From: Candidatus Hopanoidivorans cymbastelae
Lineage (GTDB): Bacteria; Actinomycetota; Acidimicrobiia; Acidimicrobiales; Hopanoidiivorantaceae
Direction of reading: 5' to 3'
DNA length: 52,496 nucleotides
Assembly (NCBI GenBank): GCA_028283145.1
Contig: JAPYNY010000085.1
Span: 1 to 52,496 of the forward strand
Shown: positions 189 to 47,848 of the stretch, in pieces
Position numbering within the stretch: the stretch's first letter is position 1
Layout of the letters: each line of letters begins with the position of its first letter
The notes under the pieces: generated by a model
The model's input: only the letters and a program-made list of their open reading frames with translations
Database searches by the model: none
What the model was told of the DNA's origin: nothing
Made by a program: the position numbers and the translations under genes

Positions 189-2093
189 GTGAATTCTTCC
201 GATAAATCCAAAGCCTCAAAAGTTGGGGTTCCTAATCCTGGCACGGTCAAGGTTTCCGACGCGGGCAACGCAGGCGCCGTGACATCCAATTCGTCTTTCC
301 TTGGTGCCTCCAATTCACCTGTCGCCAACGCACCCAACTCAGCTTTCTCCGAAGAGGGACACCCCCAGCGCTGGTTCATTTTGGGCTTTCTATGTTTGTC
401 GCTGGTGCTGATCGTGGCCAGTGTGTCGTCTGTCAATGTGGCTCTCCCTAGTATCCAACGCGATTTGAATGCGACCAACTCCGACTTGCAGTGGATTGTC
501 GACTCCTATGCTCTGGTCTTCGCCGGGCTGCTGTTGCCCTTAGGGTCTCTGGGCGACCACTACGGCCGCCGCAAAGTTCTGATCGCCGGACTACTGATTT
601 TCGGAGTTGCCACAGGCATTGCTTCGGCCGCGGATGCAGCCAACCAGATCATCGTCATGAGAGCCATCATGGGGGTGGGAGCTGCTCTGATCATGCCGGC
701 TACTTTGTCCATCATCACCGAGGTGTTCTCCAACAAAGAGCAACCCAAGGCCATAGCCATCTGGGCTGGTTTTGCAGGAGCAGGCGGCATGATCGGCCCG
801 GTCGGTGCGGGTCTGGCACTCAAGTGGTTTTGGTGGGGCGGGGTGTTCTTGCTGACGATTCCAATTGTGCTGGTGGCGCTGTTCGGGTCAATCTTTGTGG
901 TGCCTCCGTCTCACAGGCGCGAACACCACTTCCCGTTTGACCCCTTGGGGGCATTGTTGTCAATCGTGGCCATTGGCACCTTGGTTTTTGCCGTGATTGA
1001 AGGGCCGAATTATGGCTGGACCGACCCGGCTGTGCTGGGGTCGTTCGCCTTGGGCTTCTTGACGACTATATGTTTCATCATTTGGGAGCGCTCCACCCAG
1101 CACCCAATGCTGAACCCTGTCTATTTCAAGAACAGGAGCTTCACGCTGAATTCGCTGGTGATGACAGTGGTGTTTTTCGGCTTGTTCGGCTGGCTGTTCA
1201 TGCTGACGCAGTATTTCCAGTTCGCCCAGGGGCATTCGGCGCTGGATGCCGGCCTGCGGATGTCTCCTTCAGCTGTGGTGATGCTGCTGGTGGCGCCCCG
1301 CAGTGCTGCCTTGGCCGCCAAAATCGGCACGCGGAAAATCGTCTCACGCGGGCTGCTTCTGGTGAGCTTGGGCATAGCCGGGCTGGCCATTATTACTCCA
1401 GCTATGCCCTATTGGAGTGTCTTGTTGTGCCTGCTGGTGGGTGCTTGTGGGGCGGCTTTGCTTATGCCGACCGTCACCCAGCGCATTGTCAGTTCGCTGC
1501 CAAGTGATGAAGCCGGGGTCGGTTCGGCTGTGAACGACACCACCAGAGAAGTGGGCGGGTCTATCGGGATTGCCATTGTGGGAAGTTTGTTGTCGGTCGG
1601 CTACCGGCGTGAGATTGGCAGCACGATAGATGAGCTGTCAGTTGAGGCGTCTGTCTCAGGGTCTCAAGAAGCGGTGGGCGCTTTGGAAAGCGCTCAGGAT
1701 TCCATAGGTCGGGCTTTGATCGCTTCCATGAGGATTGGCGGCAGTATAGGTGAGCGCTTGCAGATAGCAGCTGTGGACGCTTTTGACGATGGTATGACAT
1801 TGGGGCTAGGTGTGGCGGCTGGGGTTGTTTTCTTGACCTGTTTGATTGTGGTTTTTTTCTACCCGAAGGAAGATGTTGATCTTGACGATGAAGCTGGGTC
1901 TGAGATTTTGCCTAGTGAGAAGTTGGATTTGGCGGCTACGGGGCTGGTTGCGGCGCCGGCTGAAGCTAGCCGTGTTAACTCTGTCAACTCAGCTTCGGTG
2001 GATTCCGTGCCGGTGGCTTCTACGCAGGCTGTGTTTGACACAGATGCTTCGCCGCCAACAGCCCCTGCTCCGGACGGCGCGCCCGGGCTTTGA
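189..2093 (+). CDS. MFS efflux transporter, DHA2 (EmrB/QacA-like) group
   Basis: Predicted proton-driven exporter of the major facilitator superfamily, 14-helix DHA2 group, in the cytoplasmic membrane. Hydrophobic helices run from about residue 62 to 560, and the loop after helix 2 carries the family motif A as GSLGDHYGRRKV. Two parts are not transport core: about 60 Ser/Asn/Ala/Pro-rich residues before helix 1 and about 75 acidic then Ala/Val/Ser-rich residues after the last helix. The start is GTG with no clear Shine-Dalgarno, so a later start nearer helix 1 is possible. The substrate cannot be read from sequence. The next gene on the same strand begins 26 nt downstream, so the two may be co-transcribed. 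A second DHA2 pump lies at 10870-12405. Confidence 0.88.
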   Translation: MNSSDKSKASKVGVPNPGTVKVSDAGNAGAVTSNSSFLGASNSPVANAPNSAFSEEGHPQRWFILGFLCLSLVLIVASVSSVNVALPSIQRDLNATNSDLQWIVDSYALVFAGLLLPLGSLGDHYGRRKVLIAGLLIFGVATGIASAADAANQIIVMRAIMGVGAALIMPATLSIITEVFSNKEQPKAIAIWAGFAGAGGMIGPVGAGLALKWFWWGGVFLLTIPIVLVALFGSIFVVPPSHRREHHFPFDPLGALLSIVAIGTLVFAVIEGPNYGWTDPAVLGSFALGFLTTICFIIWERSTQHPMLNPVYFKNRSFTLNSLVMTVVFFGLFGWLFMLTQYFQFAQGHSALDAGLRMSPSAVVMLLVAPRSAALAAKIGTRKIVSRGLLLVSLGIAGLAIITPAMPYWSVLLCLLVGACGAALLMPTVTQRIVSSLPSDEAGVGSAVNDTTREVGGSIGIAIVGSLLSVGYRREIGSTIDELSVEASVSGSQEAVGALESAQDSIGRALIASMRIGGSIGERLQIAAVDAFDDGMTLGLGVAAGVVFLTCLIVVFFYPKEDVDLDDEAGSEILPSEKLDLAATGLVAAPAEASRVNSVNSASVDSVPVASTQAVFDTDASPPTAPAPDGAPGL

Positions 2094-2119
2094 ACGCGCG
2101 GCCCGCATTGGAGGCTTAG

Positions 2120-3292
2120 ATGGCCCTGGGCGTAATCTATTGCATCATTGGATTGGCGGTGCTCGGATTCGCTTCTGACAGGCTGGTAGTCCATGCAGGC
2201 CAAATCGCCACCCGATTCAATATCTCGCAGGTCATCATCGGCGCCGTCATAGTCGGCTTTGGCACCAGCGCCCCTGAGCTGGCGGTTTCCGGCTGGGCTG
2301 CTGCTAGCGGAGATGTTGACTTGGGCGTGGGAAACATAATCGGCTCAAATGTTGCCAACGTAACGCTGGTTCTGGGGGTTGCCGCCTTGATTACGCCTGT
2401 TCCAGTCCGCCGGCAGCAGATTTACAGAGAACTGCCAGCTTGTCTGACCTCGGTGGTGGTTTTTGCCATGTTGGTTCAAGACGGATTGTCACGAATAGAA
2501 GGAGTGATTTTGTTTGTCGCTCTGGTGGTGGTGATGCTTAGCCTCTATGCCAGGGAGTTTCTGGCAGTTCTAAGACCTGGTTCGGCATCAGGCGTTTCCG
2601 ACTTTGAAGCAGCACTCAAATGGCTCAAAGACGAAAGTTCGGGGCCAAGATTCGGGACGGCCGACATTGAAAAGGCCGACAGTGAGGCCGATGCGGAATC
2701 CGTCCCTTCGCCTGAGGAGTTCACAGATGAGGAGTTCTCAGCAGCCGAACCAGCAGACACCGATGCCGCAGTTAGCACGAAATCAGACTGGAAAAAGGTT
2801 TTGACGCATGGGTTTGGCAGCAAAAGCGGCAAGCTTGAGGAATACAGTTTAGCTAGTGACGTAGTCTGGCTCTTGGTAGGGATACTCGGAACAGTCGGGG
2901 GCGCTCAATTGCTTGTAGCCGGGGCGGAAAGGATCGCCGACGAACTGGACTTGGGGTCGGGATTTGTGGGGCTGACGGTGGTAGCAGTAGGCACGTCTTT
3001 GCCCGAACTAGTTACTGCTGCAGCTGCCAGCCGCCGGGGCATGAATCAACTTTTAGTGGGCAATGTTTTGGGGAGCAATATATTTAATTGTCTGGCAGTT
3101 GGGGGGCTTGTGGGAGTGCTTGGGAATTCTGGGCTGGAAGACAGCAACCTGTCAAGCATTGCTACCTTCATCATGGTCGGAATGATGTTCTGGATGGCTA
3201 TCTCAGCCACCACACGCCAAAAAATCAGCCGCTGGGAGTCGGCATTGCTGCTGGCATCTTGGTTTGTGTCCATGCCGTTCATCATCTCTTGA
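2120..3292 (+). CDS. Calcium/sodium antiporter (CaCA family, YrbG-like)
   Basis: Membrane exchanger of the Ca2+:cation antiporter family, expected to swap Na+ (or K+/H+) for Ca2+. The two inverted alpha repeats that form the ion site are both visible: GFGTSAPELAVS with GNIIGSNVANV near residues 46-81, and VAVGTSLPELVTAA with LLVGNVLGSNIFN near residues 285-325. An acidic, Asp/Glu-rich cytoplasmic loop of about 85 residues separates the halves, longer than in compact family members. The start ATG follows a GGAGG at 2110-2114 at good spacing. Overall length (390 residues) is at the long end for the family because of this loop. Confidence 0.9.
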   Translation: MALGVIYCIIGLAVLGFASDRLVVHAGQIATRFNISQVIIGAVIVGFGTSAPELAVSGWAAASGDVDLGVGNIIGSNVANVTLVLGVAALITPVPVRRQQIYRELPACLTSVVVFAMLVQDGLSRIEGVILFVALVVVMLSLYAREFLAVLRPGSASGVSDFEAALKWLKDESSGPRFGTADIEKADSEADAESVPSPEEFTDEEFSAAEPADTDAAVSTKSDWKKVLTHGFGSKSGKLEEYSLASDVVWLLVGILGTVGGAQLLVAGAERIADELDLGSGFVGLTVVAVGTSLPELVTAAAASRRGMNQLLVGNVLGSNIFNCLAVGGLVGVLGNSGLEDSNLSSIATFIMVGMMFWMAISATTRQKISRWESALLLASWFVSMPFIIS

Positions 3293-3360
3293 GCATGTCG
3301 TCTGAATTCTAGCACCCTCTCTATTTTCCGCTCAAACTTGACTGAAGGAATTGGGCAAAA

Positions 3361-3371
3361 TGTCAGACCCC
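3361..3371 (+). repeat. Dispersed TGTCAGACCCC motif, copy upstream of Gp37/Gp68 gene
   Basis: Identical 11-mer to 8323-8333, followed by a TAAT a few bases later in both. It lies 18 nt before the ATG of the Gp37/Gp68 gene. Confidence 0.4.
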
Positions 3372-3388
3372 TTGGGTAATCTTTGGAC

Positions 3389-4141
3389 ATGGCTCAAACA
3401 AGCGATATTGAGTGGACCGAAGCAACTTGGAATCCCACAACGGGTTGCGACCGAATTTCCCCAGGTTGTGACCATTGCTATGCCCTGCGTCTAGCGGGGC
3501 GACTGAAGTTGATGGGGTCAGCTAAATACCAATTTGATGGCTCTTTGAAAACGAGCGGCCCCGGTTTTGGCTTGCAGTGTCATGAGAATGCTTTGGGAAT
3601 TCCATACCGCTGGAAGCGCGGCAGGTTGATTTTTGTCAATTCCATGTCTGACTTGTTTCACCCTCAAGTACCTCTTGATTTCATTAAGCGAGTGTTTGGG
3701 GTAATGGCAGATACTCCTCAACACACCTATCAAGTTTTGACGAAGCGCAGCAAGCGATTAGCCGAGGTGGCTAAAGATTTGCCTTGGGAAGAAAATATTT
3801 GGATGGGTGTTTCCATTGAGAACTCTCGCTACGTTTTCAGAGCTGACCACCTTCGTGAAACTCCGGCAAAAATAAAGTTCCTTTCGGCCGAACCTCTTTT
3901 GGGTCCACTAAAGCTGGATTTGACTGGTTTGGACTGGGTGATCGCAGGTGGCGAATCTGGGCTAGGCGCTCGCCCAGTTGATGCAGATTGGCTACGGGAA
4001 TTACGGGACATTTGCATTGAAGCCGATGTGCCTTTCTTCTTCAAACAGTGGGGTGGTCTCACACCTAAGGCAGGTGGTCGTGAGTTAGATGGGCAACTTT
4101 GGAGCCAAATCCCCATGGGAGTAAAGGAGGTGCTGACATGA
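3389..4141 (+). CDS. Gp37/Gp68 family (DUF5131) protein
   Basis: Member of the phage Gp37/Gp68 family, a radical-SAM-like group of unknown substrate found in phages and many bacterial genomes. The N-terminus holds the signature IEWTEATWNPTTGC and a three-cysteine cluster (Cys20, Cys27, Cys30, spaced C-x6-C-x2-C, ending HCY) that probably binds an iron-sulfur cluster; KFLSAEPLLGPL, AGGESG and FFFKQWGG are further family landmarks. ATG 3389 is preferred over an upstream in-frame TTG at 3383. The gene begins 18 nt after a TGTCAGACCCC motif that recurs elsewhere in the window, which fits acquisition on a mobile element. It is followed by rimO on the same strand. Confidence 0.85.
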   Translation: MAQTSDIEWTEATWNPTTGCDRISPGCDHCYALRLAGRLKLMGSAKYQFDGSLKTSGPGFGLQCHENALGIPYRWKRGRLIFVNSMSDLFHPQVPLDFIKRVFGVMADTPQHTYQVLTKRSKRLAEVAKDLPWEENIWMGVSIENSRYVFRADHLRETPAKIKFLSAEPLLGPLKLDLTGLDWVIAGGESGLGARPVDADWLRELRDICIEADVPFFFKQWGGLTPKAGGRELDGQLWSQIPMGVKEVLT

Positions 4142-24555: not shown

Positions 24556-24564
24556 GGGGGGGGG
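24556..24564. repeat. Nine-G homopolymer tract upstream of nuclease gene
   Basis: Nine consecutive G on the plus strand (C9 in the sense of the nuclease gene), 20 nt upstream of its ATG. The position would fall in the promoter or 5' leader, where slippage could change expression. Confidence 0.6.
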
Positions 24565-31362: not shown

Positions 31363-32052
31363 TCAGCCGTGCCCGTGCAACCCGCACTCTGTCTTGTCTT
31401 GCCCAGCCCAGCGCCCAGAGCGAATGTCTTCCACCCCAGGCGCCACTGGTTGCGTGCACGGCTGGCAACCGATTGAAAGATACCCTTGGTCTAGCAGTGG
31501 GTTATAGGGCACGTTGTGCTCCTGGATGTAGCTGGCCACCTGCTCGTTAGTCCAGTTGGCTATCGGGTTGACCTTCACCAGCCCCCGCAGGTCGTGCAGC
31601 ACGATGGGATTAGCCGCCCGCAGTTCAGATTCTGCCCGGCGCAGGCCGCTCATCCAGGCCAGTTTGCCGTCCAAAGCCCTGTCCAGTTGCCCAACCTTCA
31701 CAGCCGAACAACAATTCCGCGGGTCAACCACCCACAGCTTTTCATCGTGCGGTTTGACCGTCATGATCTTCATGTTCAGGCCGTAATGCCGGCGCACTAT
31801 CTCCAGCGTTTCCAGCGTTTCAGGGAAGTGATAGCCCGTGTCAATGAACACCACTTCAATAGCCGGGTGGATTTGAGTGGCCAAGTCAATCAGCACAGCA
31901 TCGGTCATTGAAGCTGTCAGGCTCAGATGCGGAGCAAAGCGGTCAACGGCCCACTGGATTATCTCGGTGGCTTCAGCGGTCTCGAATTCCTGGCTGATTT
32001 CCGACAGCTCTTGTGTGGTATAGGTTTGTGGCTGGGCCTGAATTTGAGTCAT
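31363..32052 (-). CDS. cysH: Assimilatory APS/PAPS reductase
   Basis: Reduces adenylyl sulfate (or PAPS) to sulfite in sulfate assimilation. It carries the PP-loop-like core (SLTASMTDAVLI, VFIDTGYHFPETLE) and the two cysteine pairs that bind a 4Fe-4S cluster in APS reductases (NCCSAVK and GCQPC), plus the catalytic C-terminal cysteine in ECGLH. The CC...CxxC pattern favours adenylyl sulfate as substrate over PAPS. It lies downstream of the sulfite reductase gene on the same strand, so the two make a sulfate-to-sulfide branch. Upstream of its ATG there is no Shine-Dalgarno but seven A, a G and ten C residues. Confidence 0.93.
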   Translation of the reverse strand: MTQIQAQPQTYTTQELSEISQEFETAEATEIIQWAVDRFAPHLSLTASMTDAVLIDLATQIHPAIEVVFIDTGYHFPETLETLEIVRRHYGLNMKIMTVKPHDEKLWVVDPRNCCSAVKVGQLDRALDGKLAWMSGLRRAESELRAANPIVLHDLRGLVKVNPIANWTNEQVASYIQEHNVPYNPLLDQGYLSIGCQPCTQPVAPGVEDIRSGRWAGQDKTECGLHGHG

Positions 32053-32060
32053 TTTTTTTC

Positions 32061-32070
32061 GGGGGGGGGG
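32061..32070. repeat. Ten-G homopolymer tract at the cysH start
   Basis: Ten consecutive G (C10 in the sense of cysH), separated from its ATG only by a G and seven A. This is where a ribosome site would be expected. Confidence 0.7.
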
Positions 32071-35058: not shown

Positions 35059-37344
35059 CTACGAAATTGCAGCTGTTGCTGCATTAGGGACGATATCAGG
35101 ATATGGGCAACTGCTATCATTTGAAGTCCATGCACGAGCAGAATATGATTTGCCTGCCTCAGTCACAATGGGGTTGAATGTACCACTGCCATCAAACTCA
35201 AGCGCGCTATAAGTGAAACTTCCAGCATCTACGTCAATCATTACTGAAGCATTTCCTATTGTAATCATTGAGTTTGAGAACTCTACCGACACAGAAATTT
35301 CAGCTTCGCCACTACCACCAGGTTGATCATTCCATTTGTCATCAGTATCAGGATCGCCCTCAGGTGGAAGCAGGATATCAAAACATAAATAGTAAGAAAG
35401 TCTGCCCAAAATATAGCGCTCATCATTTGGAGCTAAATTTCCAGTTAGTTCTAGATTATCAGGGTCAAGAGGTGTAAGAGTAACCAAAGTCATATCAATT
35501 TCTGGAATTATAGGTTCTGGTTCATCTGTTATCTCTCGAGAGGTGAATACCCTTTCAGTATTACCATTACGATAAATTGCATTAATACATATGTAATAGC
35601 CTACATTTCCAGTTAATAATGGAAACGTTTCAGTCAAAATAGTACCCATTTCCAAAGTTTTTGGAAGGACTGTCCTGAAAAATATAACTTGATTTTCCAC
35701 GCAATCTGAATCGCTACTTACAATAGCATTATAATGTGAGACTTCAGAGGGGTTAGTAGCTTGCCAGCTAACGCTTACCTCTCTGGCCCCTATAATGGTT
35801 TGCCCTAGAGGTGGTGGAGAAGTCTTTATTCTAACTAGAGAACTTTGCCCTAAGTTAGACATTGATAAAACATCGATGCAATAAGCTTCAACTGTGGTTA
35901 TTTCAGTAATTGCAACTTGATTAGAACCGTTGGAAAGCCTTATCGTCTGGCGATCACTACCGCATGATGGGGCGAATCCCACTTCATATTCATCAACTAG
36001 AGCATTTGCTTCAAGTTCAGGAGCATCCCATAAAATCACAAGCCTTGTAGGTGTTTCCCAACGAAACCTGACATTTCTGGGTGGAGCAGGTTTTTCAGGT
36101 TGGCCAGTATTAACCCAAGTTATGATTTTAGACCTTTGACTAATACCAAGATCATTGGTAGCCAATGCCCAAATTGAATAATTTTTTTCGCTTTCATCCA
36201 CAGCACTGACAGGTAAAGTTTTTTCGCAACCAGTGAAAGTTAGACTTTCTTCTGTTTGTGGCTTTCCAACTTCCGCCCAGAAGAAAGTAAAAAAAGTGTT
36301 GTTGTCAGTCTCATCGATATCACATGGTTTAGATGTTATGCTGATGTATGGGAGAGTTTGAGTTGATAGACCTGTTGATACACCTACAGGCATAACAGAA
36401 AATTCTGGCATAGCTGGTGCGCCAAATATACCTTCAAATGTAATGCTATTCTCACTAAAATTGTCATTATCTATACAATCTTCTTTACTTTCAGAAAGAT
36501 TCATCCTTGAGACAGTTAGCTCGATAACATAAATTTCGTTAGCTTCAGGAAAAGTTGCTGGAGGACTCTCATGTAAATCTGGTTGCATTGCAATATTGGG
36601 GATTTCTTGTGTGAAGTCGCCGGTATTCGAAGAATTCACACAAAGTAAGTAGTCATCATCCGTGATCAAGCCGTCATTCTGGTAATCAATAAGAAAGCGA
36701 TAAACTGTTACTTCTCCAGTATCTTCCCAAGACACGACAATGGCATTTTCAGTGCTAGATGTCTGCACATTTTGTGGAAATAGTGCCTGGCTACTCAAAT
36801 CTAAGGGAATTGGAACTCCAAGGAAGCCTCCAACATTTGAAACATTTATAGTAAAGACAAGTTCGTATCCTGTGTCATCGCTGACCATAAAGTCATCCCA
36901 CATGCAAGTATTACTTGTAGAGAAGTGATCGTTAGTTGGATTGATAGGTCTTGACTCTTCTATATCTAGATAGTAGTCACAGGAACTTGGTGCCGTGGTT
37001 GCAACGCCATCAACTTCACGAACTCCCGGTGAGTAACCCTGCAAAGTATTTTCTCCGACGTAGCTAGGTGCATCCCATGAAATTTCGATATCAAAGGCAT
37101 CTTCTCTATCAAGGGCAGACACGTTTATTTCCAAATTCTGGGGGCCTGCAGGTTCACCAAAAAATGTTTCAGACCCGCCAACAATATTATCTGTGCTATC
37201 TCTCAAAACAGCATAGACAACAGTAAAAGTTATAGTGGCAGCCAGTACTAAAATAGCAATAATTATCAGGGTTTGCATAGTGTAACCCCTCTCCGATTGA
37301 GTCTGCCAGCGTTGTGAAGCGCCAAAAAATTTCTGGTGATCCAT
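35059..37344 (-). CDS. Prepilin-like surface protein with fibronectin-type domains, second of pair
   Basis: A 761-residue protein with a prepilin-like N-terminus: ERGYTMQTLIIIAILVL followed by a hydrophobic helix to about residue 45. The peptidase-type Gly-aromatic-Thr junction is present, but the usual Glu at position +5 of pilins is Thr. The rest is predicted extracellular, beta-rich, with several fibronectin type III-like units (for example APPRNVRFRWETPTRLVILW then YEVGF) and many cysteines. Strongly A+T-rich. It is a paralogue of the preceding gene, of identical length, and its start overlaps that gene's stop by one base (TAATG). Likely a pseudopilin-tethered adhesin. Confidence 0.7.
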   Translation of the reverse strand: MDHQKFFGASQRWQTQSERGYTMQTLIIIAILVLAATITFTVVYAVLRDSTDNIVGGSETFFGEPAGPQNLEINVSALDREDAFDIEISWDAPSYVGENTLQGYSPGVREVDGVATTAPSSCDYYLDIEESRPINPTNDHFSTSNTCMWDDFMVSDDTGYELVFTINVSNVGGFLGVPIPLDLSSQALFPQNVQTSSTENAIVVSWEDTGEVTVYRFLIDYQNDGLITDDDYLLCVNSSNTGDFTQEIPNIAMQPDLHESPPATFPEANEIYVIELTVSRMNLSESKEDCIDNDNFSENSITFEGIFGAPAMPEFSVMPVGVSTGLSTQTLPYISITSKPCDIDETDNNTFFTFFWAEVGKPQTEESLTFTGCEKTLPVSAVDESEKNYSIWALATNDLGISQRSKIITWVNTGQPEKPAPPRNVRFRWETPTRLVILWDAPELEANALVDEYEVGFAPSCGSDRQTIRLSNGSNQVAITEITTVEAYCIDVLSMSNLGQSSLVRIKTSPPPLGQTIIGAREVSVSWQATNPSEVSHYNAIVSSDSDCVENQVIFFRTVLPKTLEMGTILTETFPLLTGNVGYYICINAIYRNGNTERVFTSREITDEPEPIIPEIDMTLVTLTPLDPDNLELTGNLAPNDERYILGRLSYYLCFDILLPPEGDPDTDDKWNDQPGGSGEAEISVSVEFSNSMITIGNASVMIDVDAGSFTYSALEFDGSGTFNPIVTEAGKSYSARAWTSNDSSCPYPDIVPNAATAAIS

Positions 37345-39629
37345 TATGGTGTTCCAGTTGCTGTAACTGTTGCCGGTTCTGAAGCACGATCAGTATAAAT
37401 TGCAAAAATAGTTACTTCCAGTTGTATGTCTGTATCAACGTCATCAGGTACGGTGCATTCACCCGCCAAGTTGTCACTGTTAATTGTACAAATAATCTCC
37501 TTGTCATCTGTATCAAGGCGATTATCATGGTTAAAACTAATTATATGATCTCCGTCTTCATCTACTTCTAGAGATGAAGTCACAGTGGCTTGCGTCCCAT
37601 CATCTCTGAACAGCGTAAAGGTTGCCAAATAAAGTTCAAAATTATCTATATTTGACGGAGCAGCCCATCTAACTGTCCAGTTCATATCCACACCGCTGTT
37701 GTACATTAGCATTGGACTCCCAGGCATTATATCACTTGGACTAATATTACTAGTTGCAGATGTTGTCATAGCGTTTGCTACAACTGGGAATGAAGCAAAT
37801 GGTGATGCATTATTACCTATTTCCTTTCTAGTGGCATCGCAATTCGTGCCGGCGATTACTTCTACTGTGTATTCTGTATCTTCATCAAGAGCACTAACTA
37901 TAATTTCTGTTTCAAGGCCTATATCAACAGGGGCATCCCTGCAGATGACAATGTCTTCAGAAGTGCATGTTGTATTGGGAAAGAGATCTGGTGGGTCAGT
38001 ACAATTAGTTTCCTTGAAAATACGTATTTTATATTGATCATCCAAAGTTAAACCAATTGAAGGGGGTTGGCAAGTGTTACTTTCAAGACAAAAACTTTCA
38101 AATTGGCAGTATCTTGCTTGGTTGGGTTTCATAATATTTATTTTCAATTCATCACCTCTTGGAATAACGGAAAGATTGGGGGTAAGATATCTATGTTCTG
38201 TAGCGACGGTAGTGCAAACTTCTAATGGATCGCTAATACCTTGAGAGTTGCGTGCCCATAGTGAAAAGTTATAGGCAACTCCGTTGTTTAAACTTAAGAT
38301 AATTGGGTCTTCTGTGAACTCCCGTGATTCAACTGTTCCAGTTCCATCTGCTCTATTCCATTGGAAGAGATAGGAATCTACAGAGGCATCTGAAGTCCAG
38401 TCAATTGTAAAACTAACTAGTTCTTCGGTTAAATCACTTTCCACTAATGGCTGTGCATTAAATGAACTGGGATCTGAGTCAGTTGGAAATATAGAAGAGA
38501 TCGTTGGGGTTTCAGGAATTTTAAATGACTCAAAAGTTAGGTCTAATAATTCAATGACTGAATTTTCGTCACCAGAGATAACTTCATCAGGGTTGCGACA
38601 ATCGGATTCATTTTGAAAAACGTTGTCACTATTTAAAGCATCTTCCCTTATCATCTCTATATCGCCTGCTATTATTATTTGAGGTGTGATTCTTATGTCA
38701 AATAGTTTATTATCTAGCCTATTATCCATAGTAGACAATATAAAAAAATTGTTAAAAGTGCAATCTGTATTCATTGGCTCATATTCATAAAGATCTGGTC
38801 GGTCATCACCTGCCGCTCTAGATCTCTGTTCAACTTGGTAGATCAGTCTTTCATGGTCATTTGTTCCTAAATATTCTGGGTTCTCCCAAGATATCATCAA
38901 ACGTTGTAGGGTTCCTAGTTCTATCGATCTGACTTCAAGAATTTCAGGTACTGTAGGAGTCTTAGAGATTGTAAAGCGGTGCTCTGCAGATATGCCGTCG
39001 ATTTCTGTTCCATCAGCCTCGCACGGTGTGATTGGGCTTGGCTCTGGACAAGTGAATGCACTCACTCTTATGAGGCAGTGTATTGTCAGGTAATCGTCAT
39101 AATCTATGGTGGATCCCAAAACGTCTTGGCGATTTCCGACTAATTCAATCTGTAGTAATTCTGGTCGCATAAGTTCTTCGGGCATATCTGTGTCAGGTAT
39201 GGTAACATCTTCCAAGTCTGAGCCTTCACTGTCTTCGCAATGATGGGTGGTTTTATAGCCCAACAAAGTGGGTGAACCAGCCAACTGAGGTTGTCCAGTA
39301 TAAAGCGGAGGTGACCAGCGTACTCTAGCTGAAGGAATATATTCTGGGTTGTCAGCATCAGGGTCATCAGTATGCAAATAGTGCTCAACGGAAAATCCGT
39401 GGGGGCGTGTGGGGGCGTTATCTCCTGTAAGGTCGGCAAAGGCTCGCACGTCAGTGTTGGTTGTGATAGCTCTGTATAGCACAACACTGGCTAACACAGC
39501 TGTTGAGAGCAAGATAGCTGAGACAATTACGGTTTGCAGTGTGTAGCCACGGGTATCTCTTGAAGTCGGGCTGGAGGCCTGAAACCTTGCCTGCCTAGCA
39601 AGCCAGTGTTTTTTAAATAGGGAAATCAT
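37344..39629 (-). CDS. Prepilin-like surface protein with fibronectin-type domains, first of pair
   Basis: Also 761 residues. After a basic leader, residues 30-55 read TRGYTLQTVIVSAILLSTAV, a pilin-like Gly-Tyr-Thr-Leu junction and membrane helix with Thr instead of Glu at +5. Downstream are beta-sandwich repeats of fibronectin type III character (RLMISWENPEYLG, FTIDWTSDASVDSYLFQW, MNWTVRWAAPSNIDNFELY) and scattered cysteines. Its ATG overlaps the stop of the TadE/G-like gene by 4 nt (ATGA), so all three genes are translationally coupled. No pilus ATPase or prepilin peptidase is encoded in the window. Confidence 0.7.
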   Translation of the reverse strand: MISLFKKHWLARQARFQASSPTSRDTRGYTLQTVIVSAILLSTAVLASVVLYRAITTNTDVRAFADLTGDNAPTRPHGFSVEHYLHTDDPDADNPEYIPSARVRWSPPLYTGQPQLAGSPTLLGYKTTHHCEDSEGSDLEDVTIPDTDMPEELMRPELLQIELVGNRQDVLGSTIDYDDYLTIHCLIRVSAFTCPEPSPITPCEADGTEIDGISAEHRFTISKTPTVPEILEVRSIELGTLQRLMISWENPEYLGTNDHERLIYQVEQRSRAAGDDRPDLYEYEPMNTDCTFNNFFILSTMDNRLDNKLFDIRITPQIIIAGDIEMIREDALNSDNVFQNESDCRNPDEVISGDENSVIELLDLTFESFKIPETPTISSIFPTDSDPSSFNAQPLVESDLTEELVSFTIDWTSDASVDSYLFQWNRADGTGTVESREFTEDPIILSLNNGVAYNFSLWARNSQGISDPLEVCTTVATEHRYLTPNLSVIPRGDELKINIMKPNQARYCQFESFCLESNTCQPPSIGLTLDDQYKIRIFKETNCTDPPDLFPNTTCTSEDIVICRDAPVDIGLETEIIVSALDEDTEYTVEVIAGTNCDATRKEIGNNASPFASFPVVANAMTTSATSNISPSDIMPGSPMLMYNSGVDMNWTVRWAAPSNIDNFELYLATFTLFRDDGTQATVTSSLEVDEDGDHIISFNHDNRLDTDDKEIICTINSDNLAGECTVPDDVDTDIQLEVTIFAIYTDRASEPATVTATGTP

Positions 39630-45525: not shown

Positions 45526-47848
45526 TCATAGCGCGGCTTTGTGGTAGATGTCGCACATGTGACTGAAATCTATGTTGCCTTGGCTGTCGGTTGGGAGGTG
45601 TATTCGTAAGGCTTCAAGCCCGGTTTTGGAGAATTTGCGGGCGTAATCGAACCGCCATTTTTCAGCGTTGATGGCAGTGCACACAAATACGGCTAGAGGT
45701 TTCTGGTTGTATGGGGGTTTGAGTGTTACCGCCCAGACGTCAGAGTTGGCTGCGAATTCATAATCGTGGTAAGCGGCGTAGCAGCAGCCGCCGTTCGAGG
45801 AGATGGTAACAGTGCCTTGGGCGTAGACCTTATCGCATTTGCCTTCGTCCACGAACGTGGATACAGCGTTTTCGGTTTCGCTGCAAGAAATCAGAGGCAT
45901 GTCTCCTAACGGCAGGTTTTTGTTGCGTCCGCTTCTGCCTTTCTCATAGGTTTCGAGTATGTCAGTCAGCAGCACTGCTTTTGTGGATGCCAAAGGAGAG
46001 TCCTCTGCCTTCAAGTTTTCGTGGCGGGCGCGTTTGTGGTTGCCGTCTGAGACGCTTTGAAGCGTTTGTCGTAGGTTCACTGCTGAGCTGGTGCGGTTGC
46101 GTCCGATATAGTACTCAGGAGCGAAACTGACAACCCGGCTGGTAAATTCTGCGGTCTCCGTCACATCTTTGCCAACCTCGATTTTTTCTTCTGCAATTGC
46201 CGAGATATCCAGCGGCTGGCAGTCTATTTTCTTGTCCGCCAGTTGTGGAGTTCTCGCTAGTGTCACGAAATTCCTCACAGCGTCGCAAACTTCTTGGAGG
46301 TTGCCCGTCTTTGATGTTTGCGGTTTAGCCAATTTACTTCTCACGATGTCGTCGTCCAGCATTGCCCAGACGACCTTGTCTCCGGGCTGGTGTGGTCTGT
46401 GCGCTTTTATCACCGCCCCGTAAGTACCGGCCTTGACATGAGGATAGAACAACTTCGGCGGGAAATGCACCACAGCTTTCAGCGTGTGCTTTTTCAGTAG
46501 ATTTGCGCGCCACACAGCACCTCCCCGGTTGCTTGTCTGCGAGTTGAGAAGCGATTTGGGAAGCACTGAGAAAAGCAGACCACCTTCTTTCATGTCAGCG
46601 AGCGCACGGTCTACGAACTTGTGCTCAAAATCCTCAGGCATAGAAAACGGGGGATTCATCAGAACTTTAGTCGGCTTCACACCGCCTAGGGGGTGTGCGA
46701 GACCGTCAGCTTCGACGATGTTGCTAGACCCGTCGCCTCGGAAAATCATGTTCACAATAGCGAGCGCAGCTATAGATGCGTCTTGTTCTATACCGTAGAG
46801 ATTATCTGTCTTGAAGCTATCCACGTCTCCGCCTGCGTCTATGATCTTGTCTAGAGCCGCGACTAGGAACCCTCCCGTCCCGCAAGCAGGGTCAAACACA
46901 ATGTCGTTTTGCTGCACATCCGCAGCTTCAGCCGCGAACCGGGTTATGTGCCTAGGAGTGAACACGATGCCATGCTCTTTGGCGTCGTTGGCGTACTTCA
47001 AGAATTCCTCGTAGAACTCTCCTAGGATATCACGACCGGCGCTTATCGCCGAGCCTATGTTCAACTCGCGCAGCGACTCCGCTATTTTCTGCAGCACTCC
47101 ACGGTGGCGGCTGTGGTTCTCATCAGTCGGGGGGGGGTAATCTTTATCTGCTCAAAAAACTCCGGCTTGCCGTGCTGACGCAATTTCTGCTCCGCGCGGG
47201 TGTTCAAATCGGCAATAAGCGTCAAAGGTTGTCGCTCAACTGCATCCCAGGGTCCTGTACCACCGCTAAAAGCAGGCAAGCGAGCACGCCAGCGCGGTTG
47301 CGTTTATTGATGGAACCGCTGTGAAGCAGCTCGTTGATCCTGCTTGTAGCACTCACGAACTCGAAATCGCCCAACTGGAAATCCGAGCTGTCCGCACCGC
47401 CGGATGCCAAAGCGCTCAGTATCTGCCCACGGGTCAAAAAACCAGTGGAGACACGCCCGTTGATTGTATGAGGTTGCCACGCTCCATCCACCAGCACACG
47501 CGTTTCCACATAGCGGGTCGTGTCATCAGAACCGGCGACTCCTGAAACGACAGGGCACAACACTCCTGAGCTGTTCGCCACATCAGCTACACCTTGAGCC
47601 TGGGAGACAGCTTTGCCTATATCACCGGGAGATGCTTTCGCTTCTATAACCCAAAAAACATCAGAGTCCACCTTGACTACACAATCAGGCACCCGCCCCG
47701 ACAATGCCGTTTTTAACTTGCTGTTCCGATGTGCTTCGTGCTGCTCATACACGACACCGTTTTTATCAGGGTTGGAAGTGTCCCACCCCTTAGCTTTTAA
47801 CTGGTCGTATATGTAACGATACGTTCTGGTCTCACTTAAGGTTCCCAT
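45526..47848 (-). pseudogene. Fused restriction-modification gene, off by two one-base losses (possible phase variation)
   Basis: Type I/IIG-like single polypeptide on the minus strand. ATG 47848 (GGAGGG upstream) begins a nuclease domain with CVVKVDSDVFWVIEAKAS (PD-ExK type), running to about 47222. The methylase part has HGIVFTPRHITRF, FDPACGTGGFL (SAM motif I) and MNPPFSMP (N6-adenine motif IV), then a C-terminal target-recognition region to 45526. The phases are broken twice: restoring one T in CTTTGACG near 47225 and one C in the C9 tract at 47129-47137 (minus strand) gives a continuous protein of about 774 residues. As read, the methylase part has no nuclease domain and the protein ends early. 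Confidence 0.75.
47129..47137. repeat. Nine-G tract inside the restriction-modification gene
   Basis: Nine G on the plus strand. With ten, the phase reading FFEQIKITPP would run on through PTDENHSRHRG into the methylase; with nine it ends at a TAG within 20 codons. Confidence 0.75.

What the first reader, a model, noticed from the sequence alone, without database searches (positions are those of the whole stretch)
45526..47848. Fused restriction-modification gene interrupted at a nine-G tract: possible phase-variable switch
A nuclease-methylase-specificity polypeptide is out of frame at a G9/C9 homopolymer, and adding exactly one base reconnects the phases. Slippage at poly-G is the classic switch of phase-variable restriction systems. 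A second one-base loss (CTTTGACG, 47225) is needed too, so the allele may instead be decayed or contain sequencing errors at homopolymers.
Basis: partly seen in the sequence, partly recalled or inferred. Interest (0 to 1): 0.65.

Follow-up and report, generated by a model that had tools for sequence, protein, structure and literature searches.

The report
Genome-wide poly-G switch, restriction gene included
The broken restriction gene carries one of about 67 long runs of G in this bacterium that look like on/off mutation switches in defence and surface genes; in a complete genome of the same genus the runs nearly all lie on the same strand relative to DNA replication, a pattern the papers I could search do not describe.

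Summary
Observation confirmed: G9 at 47129-47137 (C9 on the coding strand) separates reading frames of one nuclease-methylase-specificity gene, and a second -1 shift lies near 47225. Homologues keep nuclease and methylase fused across the second site, so it is a real lesion or an error, not a gene boundary. The genome has 67 G/C runs of 9 or more but only 8 of exactly 8: a two-humped distribution peaking at 9-10, shared by a single-contig genome of the same genus. The runs sit in restriction/methylase genes, a pilin-like paralogue family (3 predicted ON, 8 OFF) and signal peptides of secreted LRR proteins. So the tract is very probably a contingency switch, OFF here; but the second lesion means this allele cannot make the full enzyme by tract change alone. 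Unexpectedly, in the relative 59 of 60 runs have G on the same strand relative to replication; 7- and 8-base runs do not. Paralogues carry the tract at the same place, as G when co-directional with replication and as C when head-on. The focal gene is a new member of a known kind (cf. Cj0031); the replication-polarised switch set is a new variant. Switching itself is inferred: no reads.

The parts
47225..47848 (-). nuclease part (frame A): PD-(D/E)xK-like stretch VPDCVVKVDSDVFWVIEAK, followed by TGA
   Evidence: weak HSDR_N match; aligned with nuclease parts of homologues
47085..47303 (-). middle segment (second frame) linking nuclease and methylase: TLIADLNTRAEQKLRQHGKPEFFEQIKI
47220..47230 (-). 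second -1 frame step (CTTTGACG), located only to within a few bases
47129..47137 (+). G9 tract (C9 on the coding strand, Pro codons): inferred slippage switch, out of frame at 9
45526..47151 (-). methylase-specificity part (frame B), 541 aa open frame
   Evidence: PADLOC Type IIG REase-MTase 1.7e-39
46639..47034 (-). N-6 adenine methyltransferase domain, best Pfam stretch; motif I DPACGTGGF lies within it, NPPF just downstream
   Evidence: (residues 40-171)
45580..45969 (-). single target-recognition (Methylase_S) domain
   Evidence: residues 395-524
24556..24564 (+). another G9 tract of the genome-wide set, about 20 nt before the likely ATG of a minus-strand gene
32061..32070 (+). G10 tract of the genome-wide set, 8 nt before the ATG of a PAPS-reductase (cysH-like) gene

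Best explanation
The locus is a Type IIG restriction-modification gene (nuclease, N6-adenine methylase and one recognition domain fused) whose linker carries a poly-C/G contingency tract. Slippage by one base during replication moves the methylase-specificity part in and out of frame, so cells would differ in methylation and phage restriction. It is one of about 67 such tracts in a genome that uses them to vary restriction, pilin-like and secreted LRR proteins. In this assembly the tract is in an OFF length, and a second -1 shift upstream means the allele is also damaged (or mis-sequenced). Tract base identity follows replication: G on the strand inferred to be leading, hence C in this minus-strand gene. 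Shown: frames, domains, the genome-wide two-humped length distribution, target genes, predicted ON/OFF states of paralogues, strand polarity. Inferred: slippage, protein expression, function as defence, and which strand is leading.
For: Frames and tract. Domains and Type IIG profile. Runs of 9 or more exceed runs of 8 in this genome (67 against 8) and in the same-genus genome (60 listed against 7), while two other genomes of the order have 5 and 2 eight-runs and almost no nine-runs. Tracts cluster in a pilin-like family (29), LRR secreted proteins (23), Type ISP enzymes (14) and single Type IIG, Type III-like, Eco57I/MmeI-like, HmaB-like, HsdM, HsdS and C5-methylase genes. Pilin-like genes have a conserved RBS+ATG before the tract; 3 predicted ON, 8 OFF. 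Tract position is conserved between the two species with length changes (Type ISP; SspD-like C9 against C10). Length spectrum matches Campylobacter (52% 9G, 30% 10G; PMC6321876). Experimental precedent: Cj0031, Type IIG with a nine-G tract (PMC4889913).
Against: The second shift near 47225 breaks the same gene, so no tract length restores the full protein. No reads or second isolate were available: length variation at this tract was not seen. The nuclease domain is only a weak profile match. The same-genus genome has no orthologue of this gene to compare.
Confidence: 0.78

Rival explanations
1. Plain pseudogene: the gene is decaying, two independent frameshifts are fixed, and the tract merely marks one of them.
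For: Two lesions in one gene; OFF alleles are free to collect further damage.
Against: Catalytic and SAM-binding motifs and the long frames are intact; the tract belongs to a genome-wide class peaking at 9-10 in switch-type genes.
Confidence: 0.3
2. Assembly or sequencing error at one or both sites; the real gene is intact or has only the tract shift.
For: The genome is a 90-contig draft, and some contigs end at or near G tracts (C32, C13). Illumina reading through G-tracts is reported to fail in a Bifidobacterium study (PMC9187656).
Against: Site 47225 is not a homopolymer longer than three; frame switches elsewhere without a nearby start are rare; the single-contig sister genome shows the same tract class, so the tracts as such are not errors.
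Confidence: 0.25
3. Two genes by design: the nuclease stops at TGA and a TTG overlapping it (TTGA) starts a separate methylase-specificity protein, switched on its own by the tract.
For: TTGA is a classic stop-start overlap; the middle frame has an in-frame TTG there.
Against: All five homologues aligned are continuous through this point; no ribosome-binding site was tested.
Confidence: 0.1
4. The runs are not switches but a strand-polar chromosome mark (like FtsK-orienting or other architecture sequences), which happens to break genes.
For: Near-perfect strand polarity by replichore in G001 (59 of 60) and strong within-contig concordance in G000 (49 of 52); some tracts are intergenic.
Against: They concentrate in restriction and surface gene families, at conserved places inside leaders, signal peptides and C-terminal tails, and the base changes with gene direction while the place stays.
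Confidence: 0.07
5. Programmed transcriptional or ribosomal slippage at C9 yields some full protein without mutation.
For: Long homopolymers can cause polymerase slippage; the tract lies in a linker.
Against: Would not bridge the 47225 shift; the paralogue family shows different lengths and frames rather than one fixed slippery length.
Confidence: 0.06

Closest known systems
Cj0031 (Campylobacter jejuni NCTC11168), phase-variable Type IIG enzyme
   Same: Single-chain restriction-methylation enzyme split into two frames at a nine-base G tract; the paper reports methylation and phage restriction changing with tract state (PMC4889913).
   Different: Cj0031 is 1243 aa; the focal gene is about 770 aa, reads C on the coding strand, and has a second lesion. 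No switching shown here.
BcgI-like fused nuclease-methylase (RM) subunits with a separate S subunit (plasmid homologues L162-L165)
   Same: N-terminal nuclease followed directly by N6 methylase at about the same spacing; alignable across the linker. The name BcgI-like is my own reading; the plasmid genes are annotated N-6 DNA methylase, most of them followed by a subunit S gene.
   Different: Recognition domain is fused to the methylase in the focal gene and single; tracts in these homologues were not looked for.
Campylobacter phasome (PhasomeIt study)
   Same: Dozens of poly-G/C tracts, lengths mostly 9 and 10, restriction genes among targets (PMC6321876).
   Different: [quoted passage not shown] here about a third (G000) to a half (G001) of tract genes do, following replication direction.
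Bifidobacterium breve pilus G-tract switch
   Same: Poly-G replication slippage controlling surface pili in an actinobacterium (PMC9187656).
   Different: Two pilus clusters studied there; here about 60 or more tracts per genome, other protein families, no switching data.

Membership tests
Type IIG restriction-modification enzyme | nuclease and methylase in one polypeptide | tested here: inconclusive
   Order and homology fit a fusion, but two frameshifts separate the parts in this assembly.
Type IIG restriction-modification enzyme | N6-adenine methylase motifs and matching family profile | tested here: met
   N6_Mtase 6.5e-31; Type IIG REase-MTase profile 1.7e-39; DPACGTGGF and NPPF present.
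Type IIG restriction-modification enzyme | PD-(D/E)xK nuclease | tested here: inconclusive
   Weak HSDR_N match under the curated cut-off; motif-like residues seen by eye and aligned; no PADLOC hit for the nuclease part.
Type IIG restriction-modification enzyme | cleavage outside the recognition site, methylation of one site | not testable with these tools
   Needs protein or methylome data.
BcgI-like (RM subunit plus separate S) | recognition subunit encoded by a separate gene | tested here: not met
   Methylase_S lies in the same frame as the methylase; three of four plasmid relatives have an annotated separate S gene.
SSR-mediated phase-variable (contingency) locus | homopolymer of 8-9 or more whose length sets the reading frame | tested here: met
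   G9; frames either side differ by one step.
SSR-mediated phase-variable (contingency) locus | such tracts over-represented and of the same class in the genome | tested here: met
SSR-mediated phase-variable (contingency) locus | related genes found in both ON and OFF lengths | tested here: met
   For the pilin-like family, 3 ON and 8 OFF by prediction; not for the focal gene itself.
SSR-mediated phase-variable (contingency) locus | a one-base change in the tract alone restores the full protein | tested here: not met
   The second shift near 47225 also has to be bridged.
SSR-mediated phase-variable (contingency) locus | length variation within a population | not testable with these tools
   No reads.

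The most novel reading that the evidence does not exclude
In this lineage the stability of poly-G switches depends on replication direction: runs of 9 or more persist only with G on one strand (inferred leading), so switch genes evolve Gly tracts when co-directional with replication and Pro tracts, at the same place, when head-on. Selection fixes where the switch sits; the replication fork fixes which base it is made of.
Probability: 0.55. Interest if true: 0.78.

Novelty: new variant of a known kind. Interest (0 to 1): 0.62.

Why it matters
Most phase-variation genetics comes from a few host-associated pathogens. Two genomes of another lineage (probably Actinomycetota) with 60 or more tracts in defence and surface genes would extend it. 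The strand rule, if it holds, turns an old question (how replication fork direction affects homopolymer slippage) into something directly testable: predict the letter of each tract from gene direction, and measure slippage of the same tract in both orientations. It also warns that genes broken at G runs in such genomes should not be called pseudogenes from one assembly.

Tried and rejected
Close homologue with the nuclease part, to date the second shift: none close. Genome contigs gave one remote locus, a draw of 396 genomes of the phylum gave only methylase-level hits, and plasmids gave 30-54% partial matches. Natural gene boundary at TTGA: rejected on alignment. GC skew as cause of polarity: skew in the fetched G001 stretches is small and variable, and exact 7- and 8-runs do not follow polarity (11 of 26 and 2 of 7 concordant); replichore limits were chosen after seeing the tracts, so P values are indicative. 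HMM frame-switch scan found only 3 switches at tracts in each genome because leaders are short; it is weak evidence either way. CRISPR spacer carrying G10 in G001: no convincing match in held sequence. Other genomes of the order with hundreds of G9 windows appear, from the listed places, to have much longer runs (20 or more) and were not pursued; possible sequencing artefact. Two paper look-ups failed on term rules and were reworded (then 63, 64).

Full report
What is there. On the minus strand, window 47848-45526 encodes a nuclease part, an N6-adenine methylase and one recognition domain in three successive frames. The step between the middle and last frames falls exactly at G9 47129-47137, read as C9 in the gene. 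The other step lies near 47225. PADLOC profiles call the methylase part Type IIG REase-MTase (1.7e-39) with a Type II specificity match. The nuclease part is supported only by a weak HSDR_N match, an EAK motif and alignment to the N-terminal parts of related enzymes.

The second shift. Four plasmid relatives (L162-L165) and a family-level relative (L004, G002; 816 aa open frame) are continuous from nuclease to methylase where the focal gene breaks at 47225. So it is a lesion or an error, not a boundary, although the TTGA overlap would allow a restart. No tract length alone gives the full enzyme.

The tract belongs to a class. Genome-wide exact counts of G/C runs in G000 are 43 (7), 8 (8), 40 (9), 23 (10), 3 (11), 1 (12). 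A single declining curve would give one or two nine-runs. The same-genus genome G001, one contig, shows 77 sevens, of which 44 are the repeats of one CRISPR array, 7 eights, and 60 listed tracts of 9 or more (33, 18, 7, 1, 1 for 9, 10, 11, 12, 14). Two near-complete genomes of the order (G034, G013) have 54 and 129 sevens, 2 and 5 eights, and 0 and 1 nine-windows. Runs of A/T of 9 or more were absent in 276 kb of fetched sequence. Length shares resemble Campylobacter, 52% 9G and 30% 10G (PMC6321876).

Which genes. Clustering the tract-associated frames of both genomes gives a pilin-like family (29 tracts, no Pfam match), secreted leucine-rich-repeat proteins (23), Type ISP enzymes (14) and many single restriction or methylase genes: Type III-like, Eco57I/MmeI-like, HmaB-like, HsdM, HsdS and a C5 methylase with G14. 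A minority are near ordinary genes, for example PEPCK in G001 and the cysH-like gene in the window, and some are intergenic. I did not measure what share of the genome these families occupy, so the enrichment is described, not tested.

ON and OFF states. In eleven pilin-like genes of G000 a purine-rich ribosome-binding site and ATG lie 84-137 nt before the tract and the conserved GITLQTLI core about 30 nt after it; three are in frame and eight are not. In LRR genes the tract lies inside the signal peptide in some, with both states predicted. Type ISP genes of both species have tracts at about +110, +265 and, in two, +530 nt from the same FPR motif, with different lengths. An SspD-like pair has C9 in one species and C10 in the other near the same place.

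Strand polarity. In G001 tracts are G on + up to 928 kb, G on - from 930 kb to 1.72 Mb, and G on + from 1.97 Mb; one of 60 disagrees. dnaA is at 2.036 Mb, so an origin between 1.72 and 2.04 Mb and a terminus near 0.93 Mb would put G on the leading strand; this is inferred. The boundaries were read from the tracts themselves. Runs of exactly 7 outside a CRISPR array agree in 11 of 26 cases and runs of 8 in 2 of 7 (Fisher 5e-9 and 1e-5 against 59 of 60). Tract genes in G001 count 26 leading with G, 26 lagging with C, 1 leading with C. In G000, 49 of 52 tracts on multi-tract contigs share their contig's majority polarity (permutation P below 5e-5); all six runs of 7 or more in the window are G on +. 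Within the pilin-like family the tract keeps its place but is G or C by gene direction, including two adjacent divergent genes on contig C58. [quoted passage not shown]

Reading. The likeliest account is that the G9 is one contingency switch among many, now OFF, in a Type IIG gene that also has a second defect in this assembly. Closest precedents are Cj0031 and the Bifidobacterium pilus G-tracts. What I did not find described in the library searched is the replication polarity; literature searches cover open-licence papers only.

Noticed in passing
L095 about 510-3660 (G001 C1:50422-53534): CRISPR array with 44 copies of a repeat GTTTCGGGGGGCGGTCAGCCCCCCCTTCATTGAAG; one spacer contains a G10 run, with no convincing match in the sequence held.
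   Followed up: partly
window 32052-32070: T8 and G10 on the + strand, 8 nt before the ATG of a cysH-like minus-strand gene next to a sulfite-reductase gene: a tract beside an ordinary metabolic gene.
   Followed up: no
window 35059-39629: Two adjacent 761-aa ORFs with fibronectin type III domains, probably surface or secreted proteins.
   Followed up: no
L109 (G001 C1:926093-941832): Array of pilin-like paralogues at the place where tract polarity flips, near the inferred replication terminus.
   Followed up: partly
L100 and L113 (G001), L084 (G000): Type ISP genes with two to four G tracts in or after the C-terminal tail, suggesting switching of the C-terminal sequence rather than simple ON/OFF.
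   Followed up: partly
genomes G036, G037, G076, G086, G096, G098: Relatives in the order with hundreds of G9 windows, apparently from runs of 20 or more G where places were listed (G036, G037); real tracts or sequencing artefact not decided.
   Followed up: no
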